From positions 1-64,000 of the forward strand of contig OX638318.1 in NCBI GenBank assembly GCA_951812585.1: a stretch of 64,000 nucleotides of DNA, written 5' to 3'. Source of the DNA: Rhodothermales bacterium (GTDB lineage: Bacteria; Bacteroidota; Rhodothermia; Rhodothermales; Bin80). Positions 49,245-63,818 of this stretch are shown here, piece by piece (position 1 is the stretch's first letter; each line of letters begins with the position of its first letter). Under the pieces are notes generated by a model that saw only the letters and a program-made list of their open reading frames with translations, did no database searches and had not been told where the DNA came from. The position numbers and the translations under genes are program-made.

Positions 49245-50483
49245 CTACATGAGCAGCGTCAGCGGCTCCTCAAGAAACCCGCGCAGCGTCGCCATAAAGC
49301 GCGCACCCAGGGCCCCGTCCACCGCGCGATGGTCGCAGGAGAGCGTGATCTTCATGCGCTTGCCGGGTACCACCTGCCCTCCTTTGACCACTGGCACGTC
49401 GCGAATAGCACCGATGGCGAGTATGCAGGCATTGGGCGTATTGATGATCGCCGTAAAATCTTCGATGCCGAACATGCCCAGGTTGCTCGTCGTAAAGGTT
49501 GAGCCTTCCATCTCCGCGGGTTGAAGCTTGCGATCCCGCGCGCGCTGCGCCAACGCGGCTGCTTCAGAGGCAATGTCCGTCAAGCCCTTCCGATCGACCC
49601 CCCGCACCACGGGCGTGACCAGGCCATCCTCGATGGCTACCGCAATGCCAATATCCACATAGTTGTACTGGCGAATCTCGTTTTCCTCGGCCACATAGGA
49701 GCTGTTGACTGCGGGATGCTGCACCAGTGCTGCAGCGCAGGCTTTGGTGACCAGGTCGTTGTAGGAAACCTTGACACCGCCGGTACGCTCGGCCTGGCTG
49801 TTCAGGCGCTGCCTTGAAGCCACCGCCTGTTCCATGTCCACATCGATGCTCAGATAGAAGTGCGGTGCCGTGAACTTGCTCTGCGACAAGCGCCGCGCAA
49901 TGGTCTTGCGCATCTGCGAGACGCGGACAGATTCGTAGCCATCCGGCTGGGTCACCGCCGCAGCCGGATGGGACAGATGCGCTTCCACATCGCGCCTTAT
50001 GATCCGCCCGTCTGGGCCCGACCCCGACCCGCGCAGCTGATACAGCGGCAGCCCGTGGTCCGCCGCCACGCGGCGCGCCAGCGGAGACGCTTTGATCCTC
50101 ACGGCGCGGTCAGCTCCTGCAGCAGCGGGCGCCAATGCGTCCTTCTGCGGTGTGGATACCTGCGGCGATGCTGGTGGCTTTTCCGTTGCAACGGGTGGCG
50201 GCTTGTGGTCTGCCTGCTGGGATAGAAATGCATCCACATCATCGCCGCGCGCACCGAGCACCGCGATCAGTGCGCCGATAGGCAGGGCATCGCCTTCGCC
50301 AGCCACCTTGCGCAGCAGGACGCCATCATCATACGCCTCCACATCCATGGTGGCTTTGTCGGTTTCGACCTGCGCGATGACATCTCCGGCTGCGATCTCG
50401 GCCCCTTCATCGACATTCCACTGGACCAAGACACCTTCCTCCATGGTGTCGGTCATCTTGGGCATCTCTACGGCTATGGGCAT
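49245..50483 (-). CDS. pdhC: Dihydrolipoyl acetyltransferase (E2) of pyruvate dehydrogenase
   Basis: 412 residues in three parts. The N-terminal lipoyl domain (1-75) carries the lipoylated Lys43 in VETDKATMDVEAYDDG. An Ala/Pro-rich linker leads to the E1/E3-binding domain (about 130-165, ASPLARRVAADHG and GPDGRIIRRDV). The catalytic domain has MRKTIARRLSQSKFTAPHFY and the active-site His385 and Asp389 in SCDHRAVDGALG. It transfers acetyl groups to CoA. It follows pdhB with 22 bases between. An acetyltransferase of another 2-oxoacid complex is the only rival call; the E1 genes match the pyruvate type best. Confidence 0.93.
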   Translation of the reverse strand: MPIAVEMPKMTDTMEEGVLVQWNVDEGAEIAAGDVIAQVETDKATMDVEAYDDGVLLRKVAGEGDALPIGALIAVLGARGDDVDAFLSQQADHKPPPVATEKPPASPQVSTPQKDALAPAAAGADRAVRIKASPLARRVAADHGLPLYQLRGSGSGPDGRIIRRDVEAHLSHPAAAVTQPDGYESVRVSQMRKTIARRLSQSKFTAPHFYLSIDVDMEQAVASRQRLNSQAERTGGVKVSYNDLVTKACAAALVQHPAVNSSYVAEENEIRQYNYVDIGIAVAIEDGLVTPVVRGVDRKGLTDIASEAAALAQRARDRKLQPAEMEGSTFTTSNLGMFGIEDFTAIINTPNACILAIGAIRDVPVVKGGQVVPGKRMKITLSCDHRAVDGALGARFMATLRGFLEEPLTLLM

Positions 50484-50505
50484 GCTGCTGCGCTCTGGAT
50501 GTGGT

Positions 50506-51489
50506 CTAGTCTAGGTACAATACGTCGCGGCAGGCCTGGTAGGTGTCCTCAGCGCTGGGCATATAGTACGTCATCAGATTCTTGGCATACGGCGCAGGCG
50601 TATCCTTGGCGGTGACACGGCGGATCGGGGCATCCAGATAGTCAAAGCAGCGCGACTGCACCTGAAAAGCGATCTCTGACGACACGCTCGCAAACGGATT
50701 GCTTTCGTCTACAACTACGAGGCGGTTGGTCTTCCTGACCGAGCGGGCGACGGTGCCCCAGTCGAAGGGTCGGATCGTGCGCGGGTCTATGACTTCGGCG
50801 TAGTACCCGTCGGCTTCCAGCATCTCTGCGGCCTCCATCGCGCGCCAGTAGCTCTTGTTATGTCCTACAATGGTTACAGCGTCGCCCTCGCGCGCAATAC
50901 GCGCTTTCCCGATCGGGATCAGGTAATCCGCTTCCTCGGACACTTCGCCGCGCATCCCGTACATGAACTCGCTCTCCAGAAACACCACCGGATCATTGTC
51001 CCGTATAGCGGACTTGAGCAGACCCTTCGCATCGTCCGGGTTGGAAATAGAAACCACCTTAAGTCCCGGAAAGCAGCTGAAGATAGACTCGACCGACGAG
51101 TTGTGCGTTGCCGCCAGCTGCCCGGCGGCTCCGTTCGGCCCCCGGAATACAATCGGAAAGCTGAACTGTCCGCCCGACATGTAGCGGATCTTTGCTGCGT
51201 TGTTGATGATCTGATCCATCGCCACAAAGGCGAAATTCCAGGTCATGAACTCGATGATCGGCCTGAGCCCGCACATCGCGGCCCCTAGCCCCAGTCCCGC
51301 AAAGCCGTTTTCGCTTATGGGCGTGTCAATGACACGGTTGGAGCCAAAGCGATCCTGCATCCCTTCGCTTACCTTGTAAGCCCCGTTGTATTCCGCTACT
51401 TCTTCTCCCATAAGGAACACATCGGTGTCGCGATCCATCTCCTCCACCATGGCTGCGCGGATCGCTTCACGAAGCTGCAACTGCGCCAT
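50506..51489 (-). CDS. pdhB: Pyruvate dehydrogenase E1 component, beta subunit
   Basis: About 327 residues from the ATG at 51489 (MAQLQLREAIRAAMVEEM). Transketolase pyrimidine-binding domain: MGEEVAEYNGAYKVSEGM, RVIDTPISENGFAGLGLGAA, QFSFPIVFRGPNGAAG. The C-terminal domain has VEVIDPRTIRPFD-like AEVIDPRTIRPFDWGTVA and a closing YAKNLMTYYMPSAED. The alpha subunit gene lies 19 bases upstream and E2 22 bases downstream. The frame extends to 51606 but that part overlaps pdhA and is Arg-rich. Confidence 0.95.
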   Translation of the reverse strand: MAQLQLREAIRAAMVEEMDRDTDVFLMGEEVAEYNGAYKVSEGMQDRFGSNRVIDTPISENGFAGLGLGAAMCGLRPIIEFMTWNFAFVAMDQIINNAAKIRYMSGGQFSFPIVFRGPNGAAGQLAATHNSSVESIFSCFPGLKVVSISNPDDAKGLLKSAIRDNDPVVFLESEFMYGMRGEVSEEADYLIPIGKARIAREGDAVTIVGHNKSYWRAMEAAEMLEADGYYAEVIDPRTIRPFDWGTVARSVRKTNRLVVVDESNPFASVSSEIAFQVQSRCFDYLDAPIRRVTAKDTPAPYAKNLMTYYMPSAEDTYQACRDVLYLD

Positions 51490-51508
51490 TACGTTATCCT
51501 GGTTGGTG

Positions 51509-52627
51509 CTATCGCAAAAAGGGAAATCCCTTCTCAGTATATACGTGGTCGTAGATCGCCTCCAGCGGCGGCAGCGGGCTGCTTTCGGCAAACGCAACGG
51601 ATTCATTCACCTCCTGCTTGACGGAGCGATCTATCGCATCCAGCGCCCCGTTGGCGGCCATCTCATTGTCCAGTAAGTACGACTTGAGGCGTATGATGAC
51701 ATCTTGGTTCTTCTGGTCTTCCAGCTCCTCTTTGGAACGATACTTCGCGGGGTCGCTCATAGAGTGGCCCCGATAGCGGTAGGTTCGGATCTCTACGACG
51801 GAAGGCTGATTGCTGCGCGCCATTGCTACATGATCCCGCATGGCGCGGGTTACGCTGAACACATCCATACCGTCCACCAGCGATCCGGGCATCGCATACC
51901 CTGCGCTCTGCTTGTAGAGGTCGGCATTGGCGGCAGCCCGCTGTACGGATGTACCCATCGCATATTGGTTGTTCTCCACCACATAGACGACCGGAAGCTT
52001 GTAGAGGCCCGCCAGGTTGAGCGACTCATGAAACGACCCTTGCCAAACCGCCCCGTCTCCGAGGTAGCACACGCAGACACCGCCATCGCCGCGATACTTG
52101 TGTGCAAAGCCTATGCCGGTCGCCAAGGGAATGTGGGCGCCCACGATGCCGTGGCCGCCAAAGAGTCGTTTATTCCGGCTGAAGAAGTGCATAGACCCGC
52201 CCTTGCCCTGGGAACAGCCATCCACGCGCCCAAAGAGCTCGGCCATACATTCATTCGCAGTCATGCCTAACGCCAGCGCGATGCCGTGGTCGCGATAGGC
52301 CGTGATCACCGTATCCAGCCCTACCTCCAAAGCCTGAACCGAACCGGTGGAGATGGCTTCTTGGCCGATGTAGAGGTGAAGGAATCCCGCAATCTTCTGC
52401 TTGCCGTACATCTGCGCCGAACGCTCCTCGAATCGGCGCTGCAGCAGCATGCTGCGATACATCTCCAATACCTCCTCGCGAGAGAACCCCAGATCCACAT
52501 GCGTGTAACGGCCGCCCCGATACGCGTTGAACGATACCGTGGAGGAAAGGCGCTCCACTGTGTTGTCATCGCGGCCGTTGGTTTGGCCTTCTATTGCCGC
52601 GGCAGTGCCGTAGACTTGTGGGCTCAT
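51509..52627 (-). CDS. pdhA: Pyruvate dehydrogenase E1 component, alpha subunit
   Basis: About 372 residues. Thiamine diphosphate enzyme that decarboxylates pyruvate and passes the hydroxyethyl group to the E2 lipoyl arm. Marks: MYRSMLLQRRFEERSAQMYG, HLYIGQEAISTGSVQAL, VITAYRDHGIALALG, GGSMHFFSRNKRLFGGHGIV and the cofactor motif YLGDGAVWQGSFHESLNLAG, ending at VVENNQYAMGT. Conserved TYRYRGHSMSDPAKYR contains the loop that is phosphorylated in mitochondrial enzymes. The ATG at 52627 is taken because the extension to 52672 is Cys/Arg-rich. It heads the minus-strand operon pdhA, pdhB, pdhC, metallophosphoesterase. Confidence 0.95.
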   Translation of the reverse strand: MSPQVYGTAAAIEGQTNGRDDNTVERLSSTVSFNAYRGGRYTHVDLGFSREEVLEMYRSMLLQRRFEERSAQMYGKQKIAGFLHLYIGQEAISTGSVQALEVGLDTVITAYRDHGIALALGMTANECMAELFGRVDGCSQGKGGSMHFFSRNKRLFGGHGIVGAHIPLATGIGFAHKYRGDGGVCVCYLGDGAVWQGSFHESLNLAGLYKLPVVYVVENNQYAMGTSVQRAAANADLYKQSAGYAMPGSLVDGMDVFSVTRAMRDHVAMARSNQPSVVEIRTYRYRGHSMSDPAKYRSKEELEDQKNQDVIIRLKSYLLDNEMAANGALDAIDRSVKQEVNESVAFAESSPLPPLEAIYDHVYTEKGFPFLR

Positions 52628-52981
52628 AACGGTGTGTTTGCGCCTGTTTGATGCACAACCGTAGTGTAACAACTGCGCGCCTCTTCTGATCCGCTTGGCA
52701 CGTAAAGGTACGACTGTCCGCGCGTTTGATCCAGTATGCTGTCATTCGATGGACCCGGACCGGGCGGGTGCACGAAAGTCAACAAAAGCCGTTCATCAGG
52801 CGTTCCAGTGGGTTATGATTCGCCGCATGACGCGCAGGCAGCACATTGGGATGTGTCCAGGCTTTGAGGCCGGTGACGGCCGATGCCTGCCTGCGCACGT
52901 AGATCCCACCTGGGCACGGCCCGCCGCAAGGTGCTTGTGCATGGATATGCACGGCCACATGTTGTCACTGCTTGAACTGAC
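52628..52981. promoter_or_regulatory. Divergent control region between pdhA and icd, with an inverted repeat
   Basis: 354 bases with no credible gene. GTGCAT (52937-52942) and ATGCAC (52947-52952) are perfect arms with a 4-base loop, 30 bases before the icd ATG, a plausible operator. On the minus strand a TACACT lies about 35-40 bases upstream of the pdhA leader, but with no good -35. The two central-carbon operons presumably share this region. Confidence 0.4.
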
Positions 52982-54247
<1,266 letters not shown>

Positions 54248-54283
54248 TCATAAGCGGCGCTAGAAGCACCGGCCGCGGTGAAA

Positions 54284-54352
54284 CTGAGCTTCCCAGTACT
54301 ATGAAGCTCAGGCGAGGGTGTGCGTTGCCATGGCGACGCTTTGGGCGTCGCC
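54284..54352. terminator. Two hairpins after icd
   Basis: CTGAGCTT (54284-54291) pairs with AAGCTCAG (54304-54311), and GGCGACGC (54332-54339) pairs with GCGTCGCC (54345-54352) with a 5-base loop. Both stems are perfect and lie in the 258-base convergent gap between icd and the MazG-like gene. No T-run follows; the second, GC-rich hairpin is the stronger terminator candidate. The rest of the gap shows nothing. Confidence 0.45.
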
Positions 54353-54505
54353 TCCGGGCCGCAGCGCACAGCGCCGAGATATCACATGCAAGCGGCTCAG
54401 CGCCGGTGTGAACGCCCCCTTAAGCAGCCCTGAAGCTTGCGTGGGCTTGCTTGGGGCTTGCACATGCCTGGTCGCGCGCGGCGTGCCACTCCGCAGTCCC
54501 CTGCC

Positions 54506-54955
54506 CTACTGGCCCTGCCTGGCAATCACGCCCAGAATGTCGGGCGGCGTCCAGTCCGGCGGCTTCATCCACTTGCCATCTTCGCGCACAAAGGAGCCTG
54601 GCCCGAACTTGCGCAGGTTGGCTTCGTCCACCGCTTTGAGCACCGGCTCGTCTTCGACCCCGAAGGCAATGAGCGTGCCAATGGTTACCACTGATATGTC
54701 CGCGCATCCATCGACCACGCCTTCCAAGTTGGCGTCGCCATCAACAGCGTAATCCAGCGGCGTCTGATGGCTGATCTTCTGGCCGGCCAGCTGCACCGTA
54801 ACGCCAAGCGCCGCTACGGTTTCCATGGCTTCCTCCAGAATCAGCTTCGCCCGCAAGAGTCGCGTCGGGCCGTCGGGACTCGTTACAGACGCGGGCGTGT
54901 CCTGTCCAGCACGCCGCATAAACTGCCGTACGCGCTCGTAGTGGGCCGTGGGCAT
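54506..54955 (-). CDS. MazG/PRA-PH-like nucleotide pyrophosphohydrolase
   Basis: 149 residues from the ATG at 54955. All-alpha NTP-pyrophosphatase pattern: VRQFMRRAGQDTPASV, then the metal-binding ExxE (KLILEEAMETVAALG) and DxxxD in VVDGCADISVVTIGTLIAFG, followed by EPVLKAVDEANLRKFGPGSF. It resembles phosphoribosyl-ATP pyrophosphohydrolase-like proteins that cleave nucleotides or modified nucleotides. It follows the GTDC1-like glycosyltransferase gene by 11 bases, so it belongs to that operon. The histidine-pathway role is unlikely because no his genes surround it. Confidence 0.85.
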   Translation of the reverse strand: MPTAHYERVRQFMRRAGQDTPASVTSPDGPTRLLRAKLILEEAMETVAALGVTVQLAGQKISHQTPLDYAVDGDANLEGVVDGCADISVVTIGTLIAFGVEDEPVLKAVDEANLRKFGPGSFVREDGKWMKPPDWTPPDILGVIARQGQ

Positions 54956-54966
54956 AAGCAATTCGT

Positions 54967-56103
54967 TCAGTTGGCCGCGGTGGATTCAAAAAGGGCATCG
55001 TACTGCTCGACATGCGTGGCCCAGTCCAGCTGCGACAGCATGGACTGCAGCACCACGCGCGGCAGCGGGTGCTCGTTGCCCTTCAAGAGGTCCGACATGA
55101 TGACGAAGAGCTCGTCGTAGTCCTCGTAGAGGATCGGCGCATGAAGCAACGGCCGGTGATGTCGCTCTGGAATAAGCTCCGGATAGCTGAGCCGATTAGG
55201 CAATACTGGATGACAACCGCAGTAGATTGCCTCCATCACGGCGATGCCAAAGAATTCGTGCAGCGCCGTCGAAATCACAATGTCGGCCCGCTGCAGCAGC
55301 CGGCTGTATTCCTCGAAGTCCTCGGCATAGCCGTAGTGCAGGATACGCTCGGCATAGCGCTCAAAGGCCTGCTCAAACTCGTAGGGCTGCTCCTCGAAGT
55401 GCTTCCCCGCCAGGATCAACCTGAACCGGAAACCCGCATCATCCAGGCGGCTCATCAGCCGAAAGAACGCCTCTGGATTCTTGTCGTATTCCCAACGCTG
55501 GTTCCAGAGCACGATGGGCGGTTCGTCTGGACCCAGGCTGAAGCCCTCATCGGATGATTCATACTGGTCGTGCGCCTTCAGATTGATTCCCAGGTGCAGC
55601 ACGCTGCTCTTGGCACGGATTTCTGAGACTGTGTGCAGGTGGGTGTAGTCCGGGAACACCTTCAACAGCCCGGGCAGCGCCCGCATGAACTCCTCGTAGT
55701 GAAATTCCGAGTTGAACACTATCCGGTCGGCTGCCAGGCATGACAGGTAGTTGATGTATGCGTAGGAAAGGTCTCGCTCTTCCTTGTCCGAAATAGGATA
55801 GGTGAGCTGGTTCTCGTGGAGATAATACACGACCGGCACGCGGCTTATTTGATGCCGCGTAAGCGACAAGAGGGCCGGTACATTCACCATGCTAGATGCT
55901 AGGATAACATCGGGCTGGAATCCGCCTTCCACGGCTTGAATGGCCTTGCGGGCGATGGTGACGGCACCCCCCTGCATACGCCACTTCCAGAACCGGGCCG
56001 GCATCGTAACACGCTGGATCACATGCCGGCTATGCCGGGCGAGGCCATCCAGGAAGTTGCGGTGAGAGCCCCCGTACCAGGGCTCAAGCGCAAGCACATT
56101 CAT
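54967..56103 (-). CDS. GTDC1-like glycosyltransferase (DUF3524, tRNA-queuosine mannosyltransferase family)
   Basis: 378 residues. The N-terminus has the diagnostic LALEPWYGGSHRNFLDGL and TMPARFWKWRMQGGAVTI of the DUF3524 domain, followed by VILASSMVNVPALLSLTR and VVYYLHENQLTYPIS. The second half is a GT4-type donor domain (PPIVLWNQRWEYDKNPEAF, RADIVISTALHEFFGIAVME, AIYCGCHPVLPNRLSYPELI). Vertebrate GTDC1 is the enzyme (QTMAN) that mannosylates queuosine in tRNA(Asp). Bacterial members are widespread, and whether they modify tRNA is not established to my knowledge. It is in an operon with a small unknown protein, an ABC ATPase and a MazG-like enzyme. No tgt or queA is in the window. Confidence 0.88.
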   Translation of the reverse strand: MNVLALEPWYGGSHRNFLDGLARHSRHVIQRVTMPARFWKWRMQGGAVTIARKAIQAVEGGFQPDVILASSMVNVPALLSLTRHQISRVPVVYYLHENQLTYPISDKEERDLSYAYINYLSCLAADRIVFNSEFHYEEFMRALPGLLKVFPDYTHLHTVSEIRAKSSVLHLGINLKAHDQYESSDEGFSLGPDEPPIVLWNQRWEYDKNPEAFFRLMSRLDDAGFRFRLILAGKHFEEQPYEFEQAFERYAERILHYGYAEDFEEYSRLLQRADIVISTALHEFFGIAVMEAIYCGCHPVLPNRLSYPELIPERHHRPLLHAPILYEDYDELFVIMSDLLKGNEHPLPRVVLQSMLSQLDWATHVEQYDALFESTAAN

Positions 56104-56117
56104 GGTATGGGTGCACA

Positions 56118-56357
56118 CTAGTTAGCGGAAGCGGCCAGTGTCTTGCGAAAGGCCACCTCTTCGGCCTCAGAAAGCGGACGGACAATGGCCAGGTCCCGCG
56201 TCTGAAGCAAATCACGAAGCGTGGGATCCATGACTTCTTCCCAGGTTATAGGGGTCGTTTCACCGGGCTCCAGGGTCAGCGTGCGCGTCTTGAGCGTCAC
56301 CGAACGTGGAAACGTGTCCGCGTTCTTGATCACCATGCCCTTGCGCTTGCGATGCAT
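56118..56357 (-). CDS. Small protein of unknown function
   Basis: 79 residues from the ATG at 56357: a basic N-terminus (HRKRKGMVIKNADTFPRSV), then short strand-like pieces (VTLKTRTLTLEPGETTPI, TWEEVMDPTLRDLLQTRDLA) and a helical end (LSEAEEVAFRKTLAASAN). I do not recognise it. It fits between the ABC ATPase gene (28 bases upstream) and the GTDC1-like gene (14 bases downstream), on the same strand, which supports it being real. The frame continues open to 56597, but that part overlaps the ABC gene. Confidence 0.65.
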   Translation of the reverse strand: MHRKRKGMVIKNADTFPRSVTLKTRTLTLEPGETTPITWEEVMDPTLRDLLQTRDLAIVRPLSEAEEVAFRKTLAASAN

Positions 56358-56385
56358 ATGCGATGGAATCTTCCTTGTTGCGTCT

Positions 56386-57063
56386 CTAAAGTAACGGTTC
56401 CGGGGGGACTGTGTCAAAGCCGCCGCCCTGCCCCTTGGGGCCATAGTCTTCAATAGCCACCACATGATCTGCTCCCTGGTAGTCCGCTGGCACATTCGAG
56501 GCAATGACCACAATGCAGCCCCGCACTTTGGCATCGGCCACAACATCGGCGCACAGCGCCTGTCCCTGCGCATCCATGTTGACCGTGGGCTCATCAAGGA
56601 TCAGTACGGGCGGATTTGTCAGGGTGGCCGCAGCGATCTTCATCCGCTGCTTCATGCCCGACGAGAACGTGCGCACGCGCTCTTGGGCGCGTGCGGCCAG
56701 CCCCACCGCTTGGAGCGCCTTCTGGATGCGCACTTCCGGAAGCGGTAGTCCCCGAGCTTGCGCGATGAACTGGAGGTTTTCCCAGCCTGTCAGATCTTCG
56801 TAAACATTCATGTACGGCGCTACAAAGCCGACCTGGAGCGGATGGGTCTCGGGCACTTCGATATGGCCGTTTACTTGCAGCGAAACGTGCCCGGTGGTCG
56901 GCCGGAGTACGCCCGCCAGAATCTTGAGCAACGTGGACTTGCCCACTCCATTGGCACCCGTAACCGCGAGCACTTCGCCGCCATGCACCTTGAGCGTCAT
57001 CCTGCGAAAGAGCACACGCTGCCCGAAGCGATGGCCCAGCCCCATTGCTTTCAGCGTGTGCAT
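56386..57063 (-). CDS. ABC transporter ATP-binding protein (CcmA-like)
   Basis: 225 residues, one ABC ATPase: Walker A TGANGVGKSTLLKIL, a Q-loop-equivalent region near VGFVAPYMNVYEDLTGWENL, signature FSSGMKQRMKIA (with FSSGM in place of LSGGQ), Walker B PVLILDEPTVNMD and the H-loop reduced to ASNVPAD. The pattern is near the haem exporter ATPase CcmA and other single-ATPase exporters. No permease gene is next to it. The H-loop histidine is replaced by Asn (IASNV), which may lower ATPase activity. The gene starts 2 bases after the GH53 stop. Confidence 0.85.
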   Translation of the reverse strand: MHTLKAMGLGHRFGQRVLFRRMTLKVHGGEVLAVTGANGVGKSTLLKILAGVLRPTTGHVSLQVNGHIEVPETHPLQVGFVAPYMNVYEDLTGWENLQFIAQARGLPLPEVRIQKALQAVGLAARAQERVRTFSSGMKQRMKIAAATLTNPPVLILDEPTVNMDAQGQALCADVVADAKVRGCIVVIASNVPADYQGADHVVAIEDYGPKGQGGGFDTVPPEPLL

Positions 57064-57065
57064 GG

Positions 57066-58523
57066 CTATCGTGGCGCAATCACAAGCGGTGCGGAATGCC
57101 GTCGCGCGCGGCTCTGGAGCGCAACCATGTAGAGTCCCGGCGCGAGCCCGTCAACGTGTAGCAACATAGACCCGGTGCTGCACCGCGGCGGCCCCGCCAG
57201 CACGACCCGGCCCAGCACATCAATCACGTCGATGTGGGCGCAATCACCCATCGGATCGTCGTATGCTACGCGTATCCAGTCGTCTGCGGGGTTGGGATAC
57301 ACATGCAGCGCAGCGTCCGGGGGGTGCTCCGATACTGTATGGGTGTTCAAGGTGCCGCCCAGCGCAGCCGCGCCAGGAAGCACCGCACCGCTGTCATCGA
57401 AGAGTGTAACATTTTCCCAGGGCGAACCCAGCCCAGCGGTGGAGACATAGGTTGGCTCCCAATAGCATGCGCCGAGACCTCCGGGGGTATCATGAACGAG
57501 CTGCATCACATCGCGAATAAAGTCCCGCTGCCCCTCCGGCGTGGCAGGATACCCCGGAAGCACATGGGCGGGCAACCCCACGATGTTGTGTACATCATCA
57601 AACCACTGCAACGTCCAGGGATAGGCGAATTCGGCCAGAATAATGGGCTTGCCGTACGCAGCGGCCACCGTGTCTAGCGTCGCTTCAAGGTCCGACAACG
57701 ACCCGTGCCACCAGGGATAGTAGGACAAGCCGATCACATCGAAGTCCACCTGATACGGCTGGAGGTTGTCGAAGAACCACCGCGCCCCGCCCAGGTCTCC
57801 GCCGCGGTCGAGATGCACCATGATCTGCATGGAATCTCCTGCTGCGGACCGTACGGCCTGCGCCGCGCGCGTGAGAAGTGCCGCCAGTTGATCCCATTGT
57901 ACGGGCGTATCGAACGGACCGCCGACGCGCCCGTCGTCCCATAAGATGCCGGCAGTGATCTCGTTGCCAATCTGCACCATTGCGGGCTGCAGGCCGCTGC
58001 CAAGCAAAGCGTTCAGCACCTGTGTGGTGTAGGCAAACACCGAATCCTGCAGTGCACTGAAGTCCAGCGGCAGCCACGCTGCAGGCTTGTGCTGCCTGCC
58101 AGGGTCAGCCCATGTATCGGAGTAGTGGAAGTCGAGTATCCAGGGCAGCGCGAGAGAATCCAGGCGGGCCGCCAGGTGCAGCACATCCGGCAACGCGTCG
58201 CGTAGGGCCATTGGGGTGTGAAAGAGGCGCAGCCGCGCGCTGTTAAGGCCTTTGCGCTTCAGAATCTCCACTGCGTCGCCGGGCATCCCGCCATCCGTAT
58301 AGACAGCACCGCCCGCGTCCAGCTCGTCCTGAAAGGATATGTCCGCGCAGCGCCACGCCAAATCCTGCGCGGACGCCGTGAGGGTTATCATAAGCAGCGC
58401 AGCGCTAACCTTCGCACGTAGCGTCTGGCAACTGCGGACAGCACCGTTTCGCGCGGAAAAGCAACCACGGCCCCAAAGCAGGCGCGGCCGTTTGTACGCC
58501 AAGCTAATGAGAACCCTCAGCAT
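57066..58523 (-). CDS. GH53 endo-beta-1,4-galactanase with a T9SS sorting tail
   Basis: About 485 residues. After a signal-like segment (KVSAALLMITLTASAQ, residues about 38-53) comes a (beta/alpha)8 glycosidase: LAWRCADISFQDELDAGG, LNSARLRLFHTPMALR, LDFHYSDTWADPGRQHKPAA and AMVQIGNEITAGILW with the acid/base Glu. DVIGLSYYPWWHG and ILAEFAYPWT with the nucleophile Glu follow. GH53 enzymes cut beta-1,4-galactan of pectin side chains. The end (LHVYPNPADDWIRV, then GLAPGLYMVALQ) is a type A type IX secretion sorting domain, so the enzyme should be exported by the T9SS and anchored or released outside. The start is uncertain; the ATG at 58523 is the best candidate. Confidence 0.88.
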   Translation of the reverse strand: MLRVLISLAYKRPRLLWGRGCFSARNGAVRSCQTLRAKVSAALLMITLTASAQDLAWRCADISFQDELDAGGAVYTDGGMPGDAVEILKRKGLNSARLRLFHTPMALRDALPDVLHLAARLDSLALPWILDFHYSDTWADPGRQHKPAAWLPLDFSALQDSVFAYTTQVLNALLGSGLQPAMVQIGNEITAGILWDDGRVGGPFDTPVQWDQLAALLTRAAQAVRSAAGDSMQIMVHLDRGGDLGGARWFFDNLQPYQVDFDVIGLSYYPWWHGSLSDLEATLDTVAAAYGKPIILAEFAYPWTLQWFDDVHNIVGLPAHVLPGYPATPEGQRDFIRDVMQLVHDTPGGLGACYWEPTYVSTAGLGSPWENVTLFDDSGAVLPGAAALGGTLNTHTVSEHPPDAALHVYPNPADDWIRVAYDDPMGDCAHIDVIDVLGRVVLAGPPRCSTGSMLLHVDGLAPGLYMVALQSRARRHSAPLVIAPR

Positions 58524-58981
58524 GACATAGCCAACGCAGTTCCTCTGACGCCTCCGTGCCAAGATAGCGCACATGGATGCGAAAAAAGCGCAGCAGCCGG
58601 AGCCAGACCAAGCGCATCCGCCAAGGAACATGTTTCGTCATGTATGCCCGCATGCTACCAGCATGTAGTCTGCTGATACGCCCGTAAAATCGGCTCACCC
58701 TTGGCCGACCGCGTCTCGGGCATCTTGCATTCGAGTCATCTGCGGATCGTAGCCCCGGCTCCGCCCCTTGCGCGATGGCAAAACTTCCATGGGCAAAGCA
58801 CGACATGCGCAGCCCTCCCCCCGGGGGATGGGTACCAGAATGCTTTCTTATACACAATGGACCATGCTTTTCGCGCCCAATGCGCATATTCCCACCCCGT
58901 GCTGGAGACGACAGCCACCGCCAAAAATCGTTATCATTGAGACCATTGGCAAATATCAGCATTGATCTAACGGCCCTGTAT
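58524..58981. other. Long leader or intergenic region upstream of the GH53 gene
   Basis: About 460 bases with no credible gene. A minus-strand frame stays open (58504-58962), but its end (MRLVWLRLLRFFRIHVRYL) gives no family match. If the promoter at 59000-59028 is used, this is the untranslated leader. I find no obvious riboswitch fold. Confidence 0.3.
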
Positions 58982-59028
58982 TTAAAGTGTTACTTTAATA
59001 TTATAGGCATCGATGCATGCTGTGACGA
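58982..59028 (-). promoter_or_regulatory. Candidate promoter with a palindromic operator over the start site
   Basis: On the minus strand TCGTCA (59028-59023, four of six bases of TTGACA) is followed by 17 bases and a perfect TATAAT (59005-59000). The predicted start is near 58993, inside the perfect palindrome TTAAAGTgttACTTTAA (58982-58998), which is well placed for a repressor. A second palindrome GCATCGATGC (59007-59016) lies in the spacer. The promoter points to the GH53 operon. The block is AT-rich compared with its surroundings. Confidence 0.5.
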
Positions 59029-59627
59029 AAAGCGTTCCAGCGTGCTCGCTGGCCGAATGTCGACTGCAAGTGCCGACGCGGAGGTCGGCCTTGCAAGTGA
59101 AGGACATCACTTCGGGCACCCCGTGATTTGGCATCCGCGCATGCGCTGCGCGCCTCCATATTCGTAGCGCAGCAGCGCATGTGGGGCCGGAAGTTCTCTG
59201 GGGCGCGCCAGGTTACTTGTGCCGCACGCGCTAGCATACTTGGCGAATGGACCGCGGAAGCGATGCGCGTACCTTGCCAGTGGGGCTCGTTTAATATGAG
59301 CCTGACCGGCTCTGGCATGTCGCCACAGGTTCCACGGCGAACCGCCTTCTAATCATCACGTTGTAATCATCCGCTCCAAAGAAGCCTTGAAGCAGAGTGC
59401 CTTGTTGCACCTGTGCATTCAAGTACGGCGCACTACTCATTACTTTTGGTGCTAGCACTTTTGCTTCGGCGGATACCCTGGGTCAAGACGCGGGCGGTCT
59501 CAACCCTATTGCCTGCGGCGGCCCACAGTCGGCCCGGTGCTATGCACCCCGTGTGGGTGCGATCAGCGACACTACCCCACACGACTTCAAGCGTTGCGTC
59601 GGCGCTTCCATCAACGCGGACCTTCAC
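59029..59627. other. Intergenic DNA, no gene seen
   Basis: 599 bases between the candidate promoter and the end of the TlpA-like gene. Several short open frames exist, including a plus-strand one with a hydrophobic lead (from 59397), but none has a family match or ribosome-binding site, and they overlap the 3' end of the convergent TlpA-like gene. I see no repeat or RNA gene. Confidence 0.3.
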
Positions 59628-60899
59628 CTACCGATCGGCTTCCGCATTCTCCTCGGCCTCCTCTTCCGCCTGTGTCTCCATCTTGGCTTGGAACTCGCGG
59701 GTCCGTTTCTCCGCGAGGAGCTGATCCACGGCGACGATGATGTCGGCCCCCCGCTTCCCTGTGTGCCGTACAACGCCCTCCTCATCAAGTATATAGATCA
59801 CCGGCCAGCTGTTCACATTCCAATCCGTCGCAATCGGCCCTTTGGTAGATCTGTCCCACCAGGTTCGATAGCGGAGCCGCTCCCGCTTTTTCGCCGCGCG
59901 GGCCGTGTCTAATTTGTCATCGGAGTTCACGCTGAGCAGAACCACGGCCTCGCCCATGTCCTCGTAGAGATCCATCATAGCGCGCTGATAGGGGTATTCC
60001 GCCCGGCACGGCACGCACCACTCCCCGGAGAAGTACAGAACCACGATGTTGCCACGGTAGGCCTCCAGCGCGAACTCGACCCCCTCCATATCCTTTCCGA
60101 CGATGTTCGGAGCCACCCTTCCGGGCAGGAGCTTGTCGACTAAACGCTGGTTTCGCTCAATCGCCTCCGCTATGTTTGGATGCTCCATTTTCAGCTTCTC
60201 GAAGTAGTCAACGAACCGGGCCGCCTGCTCGGGTGAAAGGGGTGGTCCTCGCTGGAGGAGCTTGGTAGCCTGCCACAAGAAAAAGGGCGCTTCCACCTCG
60301 AAGTTGTCGACCGTCTCAGGGATCTTCAGAATCTCATCGAGTCGGGTGAGTAGCCCATCCATCTGTGCGTCGTCTACGGCGCCGTCTACAGCTTCGTCAG
60401 CCGTTACGTAGTAGTCCTCGTCCAGCCTAAATCCCATGGAGAACGGCATAATGTTGCCCGCCCGCCCAGCAAATACCCTGGCATTATTGCTATTGTTTTC
60501 GATCATCGCGCGGTGGTCCGGATACTTCTCGGCGAGATTCGCCAAGTGGCTCAACACCCTCTCCTCCTGCTCCTCGGTGACCGCCGGACCGCCGAGACGG
60601 CGGGTGAAGTTCCATAAATGGAGGTCCGCCTCCCGCTCAAAGTCATCCAAACTCTCCGCAGCAATCAGCGCTTTGTCCAGCGCCGCCAGCAGCCTCTCGA
60701 AGTCTTCCTCGTCGAGCGGCTCGCGGTACTCACTGACCGGTGGAAACCACCGCTCCTTAGCGGCGACGGGAAGATCGGGCACCTGTTTCCCCACGGTCGG
60801 CTCACCCTGCAAGGACGGCCATCCGATCGCCGCGGACAGGAACCCGCCGAAAGTGACGGAGATGAAAATCGTAATGATGATCGTCAAAGGTCGTTTCAT
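59628..60899 (-). CDS. TlpA-like thioredoxin-fold protein, membrane-anchored
   Basis: 423 residues. An N-terminal membrane anchor or signal (TIIITIFISVTFGGFLSAAI) leads to a long helical region (about 60-250: EEDFERLLAALDKALIAAES, ERVLSHLANLAEKYPDHRAM). The thioredoxin domain is C-terminal (VLYFSGEWCVPCRAEYP with the redox pair Cys-Val-Pro-Cys, then VVLLSVNSDDKLDTARAAKK, NSWPVIYILDEEGVVRHTG). This puts a thiol-disulfide reductase outside the cytoplasmic membrane, linked to a helical binding domain. The C-terminus is Glu-rich (QAEEEAEENAEA). No cytochrome c biogenesis gene is adjacent, apart from the CcmA-like ATPase 2.5 kb away. Confidence 0.85.
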   Translation of the reverse strand: MKRPLTIIITIFISVTFGGFLSAAIGWPSLQGEPTVGKQVPDLPVAAKERWFPPVSEYREPLDEEDFERLLAALDKALIAAESLDDFEREADLHLWNFTRRLGGPAVTEEQEERVLSHLANLAEKYPDHRAMIENNSNNARVFAGRAGNIMPFSMGFRLDEDYYVTADEAVDGAVDDAQMDGLLTRLDEILKIPETVDNFEVEAPFFLWQATKLLQRGPPLSPEQAARFVDYFEKLKMEHPNIAEAIERNQRLVDKLLPGRVAPNIVGKDMEGVEFALEAYRGNIVVLYFSGEWCVPCRAEYPYQRAMMDLYEDMGEAVVLLSVNSDDKLDTARAAKKRERLRYRTWWDRSTKGPIATDWNVNSWPVIYILDEEGVVRHTGKRGADIIVAVDQLLAEKRTREFQAKMETQAEEEAEENAEADR

Positions 60900-61850
60900 G
60901 ATGGTCGCACCGTTTGTAAGTCGTCAGGCAGGTAGTCGTCAGCGTACCGATTTTTGCGGCAGGCACAGAACGGAATTCCCGTACAATATAGGGGGAGAGA
61001 TTTGATGTCAAGGTTGATTCTTCACAGAAAGTCTATTGGCGCGTGTGACCGTTCCGCTCCGTGCTTGGACGTCCGAAGCGGTCCCTCCCTACGTCTGTTG
61101 TGTCTTAAGGGAGGCTACGGGCCCTTGAAGGTGCCCGTCCAGGCAAAGCGTCAGATGAACGCCAGTGCCATCACGCACTGGACCTCTGCAACAAGCGCTT
61201 CGCTTACCCATGGGCAAAGTGTATACGCTACTTGCCCTCCTACGTACGCAGGTCCTCGCCCATGCAGGGCGCCAGTGGCAATATCTCTGGAGCTATCTTG
61301 AAGCGATTCGACTTCTGCATCGCAACCAGGTGTCCACCGAATGGACTTCCAGAATGCTTACGCCGCATGTCGTACGCGCATTCACCGCCAAAATCCCCTT
61401 CAGGCGTAGGCCCCGCTTTGAAACCGGGTGCCAACACTCGATGGGACAAGGCTTCGAACCCCGCGGGTTTACCTGAACAAGCTCGACCTAGCTGTTCGAA
61501 TACGATCGAACACTTGCGGGCATCAACCTCCAAAGCTGTTGTCAGAAGATCAGGCCAGACCACTTCAGACAATCTGGTTTCGGCGCTAAAGCGATCTTCT
61601 ATGGAACGGGCGCTATCGGCCATTGCTAGCACCATGGGTCGCGCTTGGCACCAACCGTCACTGTCTGAGCCTTCTAGCCGTGCCTCCTGCAGTCCGGCTT
61701 ATCAAAAAGCTGCACCGCTGCAGTTCACAGTTCAGTGTGGGGTTCATTTCCTACCCTTCCAAGTTAAATGGTTTCTTCGCCCGCTTGGTGGCATACGTAC
61801 CGCCATGCAATTGGGATGGCCCTGCCCGAACGGGCTCCGCGTGTGAACTT
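60900..61850. other. Long region with no recognised gene
   Basis: About 950 bases. Overlapping open frames on both strands (for example 61240-61635 minus and 61232-61846 plus) show no family match, Shine-Dalgarno or signal peptide. A hairpin ACGGGC (61117-61122) / GCCCGT (61133-61138) is present. Stretches such as FKAGPTPEGDFGGECAYDMR on the minus strand look protein-like but I cannot place them; a decayed gene or mobile element remnant is possible. Confidence 0.3.
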
Positions 61851-63818
61851 GTGATACAGCTACAAGGCATCTCCCTGGCGCTAGGCGGCCAGCCGATCCT
61901 GGACAGGCTCTCCTGGACCATCAAGCCGGGACAGCGTATTGGCCTGATTGGCAGCAATGGCGCGGGCAAGACAACCTTGCTGCGACTTGTCGCCGGGCAG
62001 CTTGAGGCCGACAGCGGTGCGGTGGCACGCAAAGGGATCACTGGATACCTGGCCCAGGATGTGCAAGCCATCGCGCCCAAGCGAACCGTACTCGAAGAGG
62101 CACTCAGGGCATTCAATGAGTTGGAGGAGCTCCTTGCAAGTGAGCAGGCGATCATGCGCGCGCTGGCGCAACATGCAGAGCCGCCCACCAAGCTCTTGCG
62201 CGAGCTGGAGCGCGTACAGACCCTGCTTTCGATGAGTGAAGCGCACATGGTGCGGCCACGTACGGAAACAGTACTTGCAGGCCTGGGATTTGATACCACG
62301 GATTTTGACCGGCCTATTGCAACGTTGTCCGGGGGCTACCGCATGCGCGTCGTTCTGGCGCAGATCTTGCTGAAGAAACCTGATGTTCTGCTTCTCGACG
62401 AACCGACCAACCACTTGGATATCGTCAGCATTGACTGGCTGGAACAGTATCTCAAAAGCTATGCAGGCACCGTGGTCCTGGTGTCGCATGATCGCTATTT
62501 CCTGAATCGCATGGTGACCTCAATCGCGCATCTGCGCATGGGACGAATCACCGCATATGCCGGCAATTACGACTACTTCCTGGCCGAGCGCAAAAAGCGC
62601 AGGGTCCTGGAGCAGGCAGCCTACAACAATCAGCAGCGGGAAATTGCGCAAGCGGAACGCTTTATTGCGCGCTTTCGCTACAAGAACACAAAGGCGCGTC
62701 AGGTGCAGAGTCGCATCAAGCAGCTGCAGAAGATGGAACGCCTCTTGCCGCCAGAAAGGGAGGAGGCGCGGATCAGACTGCGGTTTCCGGTCCAGCGCCA
62801 GTCTGGGCGCGTGGTCATGGCGCTGTCTCAGTTTTCCAAGGAGTACGCCGCGCCCGCGCGCGTGCAGGTCTTTAAGGATGCCGGACCGCTGACCATTGGG
62901 CGCGGAGACAAGATCGCGCTTATCGGCAAGAACGGTGCAGGCAAGTCCACATTGGCACGCATCCTGGGCGGCACCGAGGACTTTGACGGCACGCGCAAGG
63001 TTGGACACCATGTGGACGCTGGTTTCTTTGCGCAGCACCAGGCGGAAGCGCTTTGCCCGCAGCATACCGTGCTGGCGTCCTTACAGGAAGCGGCCACGCA
63101 GCAGACAGAAGGCGAGCTCCGCACGCTGCTCGGGTCTTTTCTGTTCACCGGCGACGATGTGTTCAAGCCTGTTGCGGTGTTGTCGGGCGGCGAAAGGAGC
63201 CGTTTGGCGCTGGCTCGCACCCTCGTGGCAGGCACGAATTTTCTTATTCTGGACGAGCCCACCAACCATCTGGACATCGCGTCTATCCAGGTGCTGATAG
63301 AGGCGCTCAAGCAGTACCAGGGCTCATTTGTGGTAGTAAGCCATGACCGACATTTCCTGGACCAGGTAGCCAACACCATCTGGCATGTTGGTGCCGGCCG
63401 CGTGCGCGTATATGGAGGGACTTATTCGGAGTATCAGTGGCACGTCACGCAGGGCAGTGGCGAGCCCATGCGTGGCGCCGATACAGCCCGGCTCACGCAG
63501 CAGCGTGCGGCCAGGCAGGTCACGAGGCGTTCCGGCGGCCCGAAGACCAAGGCCCAGAAGCGCCGTGAAGCCGAAGCCCGCAATGCCACGTATCGCAGCG
63601 GCCGTGCGAGCGACACTGTTCAGGCGCAGCTCACGCAGGCTGAAGAAGCCATCGCAGCCCTGGAGGCGCGCCGCGCGTCGGTTGAAGCGCTCCTGGGCGA
63701 CACTGCGTCGTATGACGATGCCGCGCGGGTGCGGGAGGCGAGCGCGGAATACGCAGACCTGCAAGCAGCGCTCCATGCACTGTATAAAGAGTGGGAATCG
63801 TTGGCGGATCAGGTATGA
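61851..63818 (+). CDS. ABC-F family ATPase (translation/ribosome-associated type)
   Basis: 655 residues from the GTG at 61851 with two ABC ATPase domains and no membrane part. Domain 1: IGLIGSNGAGKTTLLRLVAG (Walker A), LSGGYRMRVVLAQ (signature), DVLLLDEPTNHLDIVSIDWL (Walker B). Linker: the P-site tRNA-interaction motif region YNNQQREIAQAERFIARFRY, KNTKARQVQSRIKQLQKM. Domain 2: IALIGKNGAGKSTLARILGG, LSGGERSRLALARTLVAG, LILDEPTNHLDIASIQVLI. A long coiled-coil C-terminal extension follows (about 570-655, TKAQKRREAEARNAT, EEAIAALEARRASVEALL), like the Uup-type tail that binds nucleic acid. ABC-F proteins act on the ribosome. The frame is open further upstream to 61623 without conserved sequence. 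Confidence 0.93.
   Translation: MIQLQGISLALGGQPILDRLSWTIKPGQRIGLIGSNGAGKTTLLRLVAGQLEADSGAVARKGITGYLAQDVQAIAPKRTVLEEALRAFNELEELLASEQAIMRALAQHAEPPTKLLRELERVQTLLSMSEAHMVRPRTETVLAGLGFDTTDFDRPIATLSGGYRMRVVLAQILLKKPDVLLLDEPTNHLDIVSIDWLEQYLKSYAGTVVLVSHDRYFLNRMVTSIAHLRMGRITAYAGNYDYFLAERKKRRVLEQAAYNNQQREIAQAERFIARFRYKNTKARQVQSRIKQLQKMERLLPPEREEARIRLRFPVQRQSGRVVMALSQFSKEYAAPARVQVFKDAGPLTIGRGDKIALIGKNGAGKSTLARILGGTEDFDGTRKVGHHVDAGFFAQHQAEALCPQHTVLASLQEAATQQTEGELRTLLGSFLFTGDDVFKPVAVLSGGERSRLALARTLVAGTNFLILDEPTNHLDIASIQVLIEALKQYQGSFVVVSHDRHFLDQVANTIWHVGAGRVRVYGGTYSEYQWHVTQGSGEPMRGADTARLTQQRAARQVTRRSGGPKTKAQKRREAEARNATYRSGRASDTVQAQLTQAEEAIAALEARRASVEALLGDTASYDDAARVREASAEYADLQAALHALYKEWESLADQV

What the first reader, a model, noticed from the sequence alone, without database searches (positions are those of the whole stretch)
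54967..56103. Bacterial relative of the tRNA-queuosine mannosyltransferase
LALEPWYGGSHRNFLDGL and PARFWKWRM are diagnostic of the DUF3524 family that includes vertebrate GTDC1 (QTMAN), which mannosylates queuosine in tRNA(Asp). A bacterial member next to a nucleotide pyrophosphohydrolase invites the hypothesis of a glycosylated Q-tRNA, or of another hypermodified base, in this organism.
Basis: partly seen in the sequence, partly recalled or inferred. Interest (0 to 1): 0.65.

Follow-up and report, generated by a model that had tools for sequence, protein, structure and literature searches.

The report
Bacterial tRNA-queuosine mannosyltransferase homologue
This gene encodes a bacterial relative of the animal enzyme that adds the sugar mannose to queuosine, a modified base in tRNA; the genome encodes the queuosine pathway it would need and the family is widespread in bacteria, so sugar-decorated queuosine may exist in bacteria, but nobody has measured it here.

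Summary
Window 54967-56103 (minus strand, 378 aa) is a complete two-domain GT4 glycosyltransferase. Its N-terminal domain matches Pfam QTMAN_N over all 168 positions (E 1.3e-60). The genome encodes TGT, QueA and QueG, so tRNA-queuosine is predicted, and a GDP-mannose pyrophosphorylase-like protein. The gene is not an oddity. Every genome listed from the same class (74, own included) has it. It also occurs in Saprospiria-type Bacteroidota, about 30% of sampled Marinimicrobia genomes, Desulfuromonadia, Opitutales and Calditrichota. It falls into two deep clades, and many Balneolaceae carry one copy of each. AlphaFold gives a confident GT-B fold of the BshA/MshA/PimB'/PimA type. The most likely role is transfer of a hexose, probably mannose, to queuosine-34 of one or more tRNAs. 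That role is inferred from homology, not shown: no queuosine gene lies near the gene in any of 113 neighbourhoods, and TGT/QueA are so common in these phyla that co-occurrence has no power. The adjacent pyrophosphohydrolase carries no evidence; the pairing was seen in one other genome only. I rate this a new member of a known family. Glycosylated queuosine has, as far as I could find, not been reported from bacteria, and LC-MS of tRNA would settle it.

The parts
54967..56103 (-). QTMAN-family GT4 glycosyltransferase, 378 aa (N-terminal QTMAN_N domain, residues 2-173; C-terminal GT1/GT4 domain, about 190-378)
   Evidence: Pfam PF12038 E 1.3e-60 and PF00534 E 1.4e-13; AlphaFold2 pLDDT 90.9, pTM 0.90; PDB fold matches to GT4 enzymes, Z about 25-31
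56118..56360 (-). small protein of about 70-90 aa just upstream, conserved before the glycosyltransferase in several Rhodothermales-type relatives; no Pfam match
   Evidence: cluster c7 next to QTMAN in L035, L040, L042, L046; no Pfam family
54506..54961 (-). PRA-PH/MazG-like nucleotide pyrophosphohydrolase directly downstream; probably cotranscribed, but pairing not conserved
   Evidence: PF01503 E 9.3e-8; phrog_671 E 2.7e-26; neighbour only in the window and L035; junction sequence
56386..57063 (-). ABC-transporter ATP-binding protein (CcmA-like) upstream on the same strand; also upstream in some relatives
   Evidence: PF00005 E 4.8e-29, TIGR01189 E 5.1e-39, cluster c3

Best explanation
The gene encodes a cytosolic, retaining GT-B (GT4) glycosyltransferase that transfers a hexose, most probably mannose from GDP-mannose, to a hydroxyl of the cyclopentene ring of queuosine-34 in one or more of tRNA-Asp, -Tyr, -His and -Asn after TGT, QueA and QueG have made Q. 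Shown here: family membership, predicted fold, presence of TGT/QueA/QueG and of a GDP-mannose pyrophosphorylase-like protein. Inferred: that Q-tRNA is the acceptor, that mannose is the sugar, and which tRNA is used.
For: QTMAN_N matches over its full length. In GT-B enzymes the N-terminal domain binds the acceptor (established knowledge), and between clades and within clade B it is better conserved than the donor domain: A against B, 43% N against 39% C; within B, 58% against 49% (within A the reverse, 56% against 64%). Human GTDC1 as recalled from memory (a lead, not a record) aligns over both domains and shares family-specific residues such as W200, R203-W204-E205, D207, F284-F285-G286, E291 and H96-E97-N98-Q99. 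The genome has TGT, QueA and QueG and a ManC-like protein, E 6e-100. All 78 QTMAN-positive genomes of the 296 sampled in the phylum have QueA. Of 8 QTMAN-positive MAGs without a TGT match, 5 have a full QueA, pointing to assembly gaps, and one more carries a QTMAN contig with Desulfuromonadales gene order, so probably misbinned. The fold matches are intracellular or membrane-associated GT4s and include the GDP-mannose enzymes PimB' and PimA. Immediate neighbours are not glycan clusters.
Against: No direct evidence of activity. No queuosine gene (queA, queC, queD, queE, queF, tgt, queG) within the flanks (mostly 5-7 kb) in 113 neighbourhoods. Presence of TGT/QueA cannot discriminate, because both are nearly universal in these phyla; in Marinimicrobia TGT is missing in 4/60 QTMAN-positive and 10/139 QTMAN-negative genomes, Fisher p = 1. 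Identity to the recalled vertebrate protein is only about 30-36%, enough for a change of acceptor or donor. The protein is not strongly basic (pI 5.6; N domain 7.9).
Confidence: 0.6

Rival explanations
1. It glycosylates queuosine, but with a different sugar or hydroxyl than the animal enzyme (for example glucose, galactose or GlcNAc), and the two deep bacterial clades differ in sugar or in the tRNA served.
For: Two clades with 98/98 and 99/96 support, both kept side by side in Balneolaceae genomes; they differ at the GT4 EX7E motif, HEFFG in clade A and mostly QDFFG in clade B. PDB neighbours use various NDP-sugars. In the mosquito Aedes aegypti manQ sits on tRNA-Tyr (PMC11705514), so tRNA choice varies in the family.
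Against: The donor cannot be read from sequence here; GDP-mannose synthesis looks present; the recalled human protein carries the clade-A type HEFFG motif.
Confidence: 0.2
2. It glycosylates a small cytosolic molecule (a thiol, pterin or sugar acid, as BshA, MshA or tetrahydrobiopterin glucosyltransferase do) and has nothing to do with tRNA.
For: Best fold matches include BshA, MshA and the tetrahydrobiopterin glucosyltransferase 9v0l, Z 25-29; no link to translation genes that holds across phyla.
Against: Those matches share only 14-17% identity and the general GT4 fold; TIGR03999 (BshA) scores 22 bits against a cut-off of 273.7. The specific N-terminal domain is that of the queuosine enzyme.
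Confidence: 0.14
3. It is one more surface- or exopolysaccharide glycosyltransferase.
For: Weak partial NCBIfam matches to EPS glycosyltransferases HpsP and EpsE, far below cut-off.
Against: No glycan cluster: among 131 immediate neighbours from the 80 genome loci, the 25 commonest Pfam families include no glycosyltransferase. Presence in all sampled genomes of the class looks like housekeeping.
Confidence: 0.06

Closest known systems
QTMAN / GTDC1 (tRNA-queuosine alpha-mannosyltransferase of animals; Pfam PF12038 QTMAN_N)
   Same: N-terminal family domain over its full length, GT4 C-terminal domain, shared family-specific motifs; queuosine pathway present in the organism
   Different: Bacterial, about 378 aa without the long insert between the domains seen in the recalled human protein; about 30-36% identical to that recalled sequence; the host makes queuosine de novo instead of salvaging queuine; activity unmeasured
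GluQ-RS, the enzyme that adds glutamate to queuosine of tRNA-Asp in proteobacteria (from own knowledge)
   Same: Would also decorate the cyclopentene ring of Q34 in bacteria
   Different: Unrelated fold and a different added group
BshA, MshA, PimB', PimA (GT4 glycosyltransferases)
   Same: GT-B fold, Z 25-29 over about 320-340 residues
   Different: 14-17% identity, other acceptors, not of the QTMAN_N family

Membership tests
QTMAN (PF12038) | QTMAN_N domain above Pfam's gathering score | tested here: met
   204.5 bits against 25, positions 1-168 of 168
QTMAN (PF12038) | GT4-type GT-B catalytic half with EX7E motif | tested here: met
   PF00534 E 1.4e-13; HEFFGIAVMEA motif; GT-B fold model pLDDT 90.9 and PDB GT4 matches
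QTMAN (PF12038) | Acceptor pathway present: TGT plus queuosine synthesis | tested here: met
   TGT E 5e-146, QueA E 4e-133, QueG E 4e-109; QueH absent
QTMAN (PF12038) | Donor GDP-mannose can be made | tested here: inconclusive
   ManC-like protein 334.6 bits, below the bifunctional model's cut-off of 372.95; phosphomannomutase not searched
QTMAN (PF12038) | Transfers mannose to Q34 of tRNA | not testable with these tools
   Needs tRNA LC-MS or an in vitro assay
BshA (TIGR03999) | Score above the equivalog cut-off | tested here: not met
   22.2 bits against 273.7

The most novel reading that the evidence does not exclude
Bacteria of several phyla make sugar-decorated queuosine in their tRNA with QTMAN homologues, and Balneolaceae with both deep clades decorate two different tRNAs or use two different sugars. 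If so, glycosyl-queuosine is not an animal invention and GTDC1 may descend from a bacterial enzyme.
Probability: 0.5. Interest if true: 0.65.

Novelty: new member of a known kind. Interest (0 to 1): 0.42.

Why it matters
Glycosylated queuosine is described from animal tRNA in the papers found here, and I found no report of it in bacteria. A housekeeping-like bacterial QTMAN in an organism that makes its own queuosine would turn an animal-only modification into a widespread one, provide simple culturable systems to study what the sugar does in decoding, and supply small enzymes for structure and assay work.

Tried and rejected
Co-occurrence of QTMAN with TGT or QueA: no power, both near universal in Bacteroidota (QueA 295/296), Marinimicrobia (TGT 185/199) and Verrucomicrobiota (TGT 374/384). 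Gene neighbourhoods for a queuosine link: none within the flanks in 113 loci. tRNA genes nearby: sporadic, no pattern. Viral contigs, plasmids and phages: no true relative; phage hits cover only the generic GT domain. PDB by sequence: no solved QTMAN, one weak GT4 hit with the profile. A solved QTMAN by fold: none listed. A Chloroflexi genome with QTMAN but no TGT (L141/G319) looked like a counterexample, but its contig has the Desulfuromonadales order ispG-QTMAN and is probably misbinned. Rfam: no match in 50000-62000. Pyrophosphohydrolase partnership: rejected as not conserved. The first QueG neighbour search used a wrong ORF and was repeated.

Full report
OBSERVATION. Pfam PF12038 QTMAN_N matches with E 1.3e-60 over 168 of 168 positions and PF00534 covers the C-terminal half. 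It is the only copy in the 3.2-Mb genome.

PATHWAY. The genome encodes TGT (1018421-1019491, E 5e-146), QueA (2985936-2986970, E 4e-133) and QueG (1720647-1721570, E 4e-109), and no QueH. From established pathway knowledge this predicts tRNA with queuosine at position 34. The TGT carries the stretches DECPP and GGLSVGE, which from own knowledge fit a bacterial, preQ1-inserting enzyme. A ManC-like mannose-1-phosphate guanylyltransferase is present (E 6e-100, below the bifunctional model's cut-off), so GDP-mannose is plausible.

DISTRIBUTION. In 296 genomes of the phylum 78 have the gene: 74 from the own class, the own genome included (every genome shown as of that class), and 4 from elsewhere in the phylum. 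In Marinimicrobia 60 of 199 genomes have it. No relative was found in viral contigs or plasmids, and in phages only the generic GT domain matched. The maximum-likelihood tree has two deep clades: A (own class) and B (all others plus a second copy in Balneolaceae), supports 98/98 and 99/96. Many genomes of that group have two copies, and in the genome traced in the tree (G143) there is one of each clade. The clades differ in the catalytic EX7E region, HEFFG or YEFFC against mostly QDFFG.

FOLD. AlphaFold2 with 40 family members gives pLDDT 90.9 and pTM 0.90. The close PDB matches are GT-B glycosyltransferases: sucrose-phosphate synthase, BshA, MshA, a methylmannose polysaccharide mannosyltransferase, PimB' with GDP-Man, PimA with GDP-Man. 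This supports an NDP-sugar transferase but does not name the acceptor. No solved QTMAN appeared.

ACCEPTOR. The argument for queuosine is homology. The domain that defines the family is the N-terminal, acceptor-side half. It is somewhat better conserved than the donor half between the clades (43 against 39%) and within clade B (58 against 49%), but not within clade A (56 against 64%). Human GTDC1 written from memory, to be treated as a lead only, aligns over both halves at about 30-36% identity and shares 69 columns that are at least 85% conserved in the bacterial set.

TESTS THAT DID NOT DISCRIMINATE. QueA and TGT are nearly universal in the phyla searched, so co-occurrence is required but weak; in Marinimicrobia there is no association (Fisher p = 1). 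The QTMAN-positive genomes without TGT are drafts: 5 of 8 have a full QueA, one has a probably misbinned QTMAN contig plus a QueA fragment, and two (1.1 and 1.2 Mb) have neither. Gene context changes from phylum to phylum: ABC ATPase and a small protein in the own order, mutL in Balneolaceae clade A, tyrS-smpB in Marinimicrobia, ispG and a class-II tRNA synthetase (ProRS by its sequence) in Desulfuromonadales, an alpha/beta hydrolase in Saprospiraceae. No queuosine gene lies within the flanks in 113 loci, and there is no glycan cluster. The neighbouring pyrophosphohydrolase is paired with the gene in one other mapped genome only and is not evidence for a modified base.

LITERATURE. The library holds papers on QTMAN/GTDC1 in animals (PMC12518689, PMC12313893, PMC11705514) and on manQ chemistry (PMC8654956), but none of those found describes a bacterial QTMAN or glycosylated queuosine in bacteria. 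Subscription papers, including the original identification (Zhao et al. 2023, Cell, cited in PMC12313893), are not held, so an existing remark on bacterial homologues there cannot be excluded.

VERDICT. A real, housekeeping-like gene of a known family, whose predicted product, glycosylated queuosine, has to my knowledge not been reported in bacteria. Probability that it glycosylates queuosine in tRNA is about 0.8 in all (0.6 for the mannose-like version, 0.2 for another sugar or hydroxyl).

Noticed in passing
L094, L106, L110, L117, L134 genomes (G299, G303, G304, G307, G315): Desulfuromonadales-type genomes with QTMAN have two TGT matches (two full-length genes in G299, G303, G304, G315; G307's second match is a fragment); the second may have another base or tRNA specificity.
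   Followed up: no
Balneolaceae genomes such as G143 (L058 and L059) and G026 (L049 and L050): Two QTMAN paralogues per genome, one of each deep clade; one next to mutL, the other in a different setting.
   Followed up: partly
L079, L091, L132, L138 (and L105, L149): In Marinimicrobia QTMAN lies beside smpB and tyrS, divergently; tyrosine tRNA is a queuosine tRNA.
   Followed up: partly
L141 (contig JADFVC010000241.1, filed as Chloroflexi): Contig with the Desulfuromonadales gene order ispG-QTMAN; probably misbinned.
   Followed up: yes
window 57066-58631: Family 53 glycoside hydrolase with a Por secretion tail, upstream of the ABC ATPase in the same run of minus-strand genes.
   Followed up: no
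phylum sample: Many Bacteroidota genomes carry two QueA paralogues; the role of the second is not obvious.
   Followed up: no
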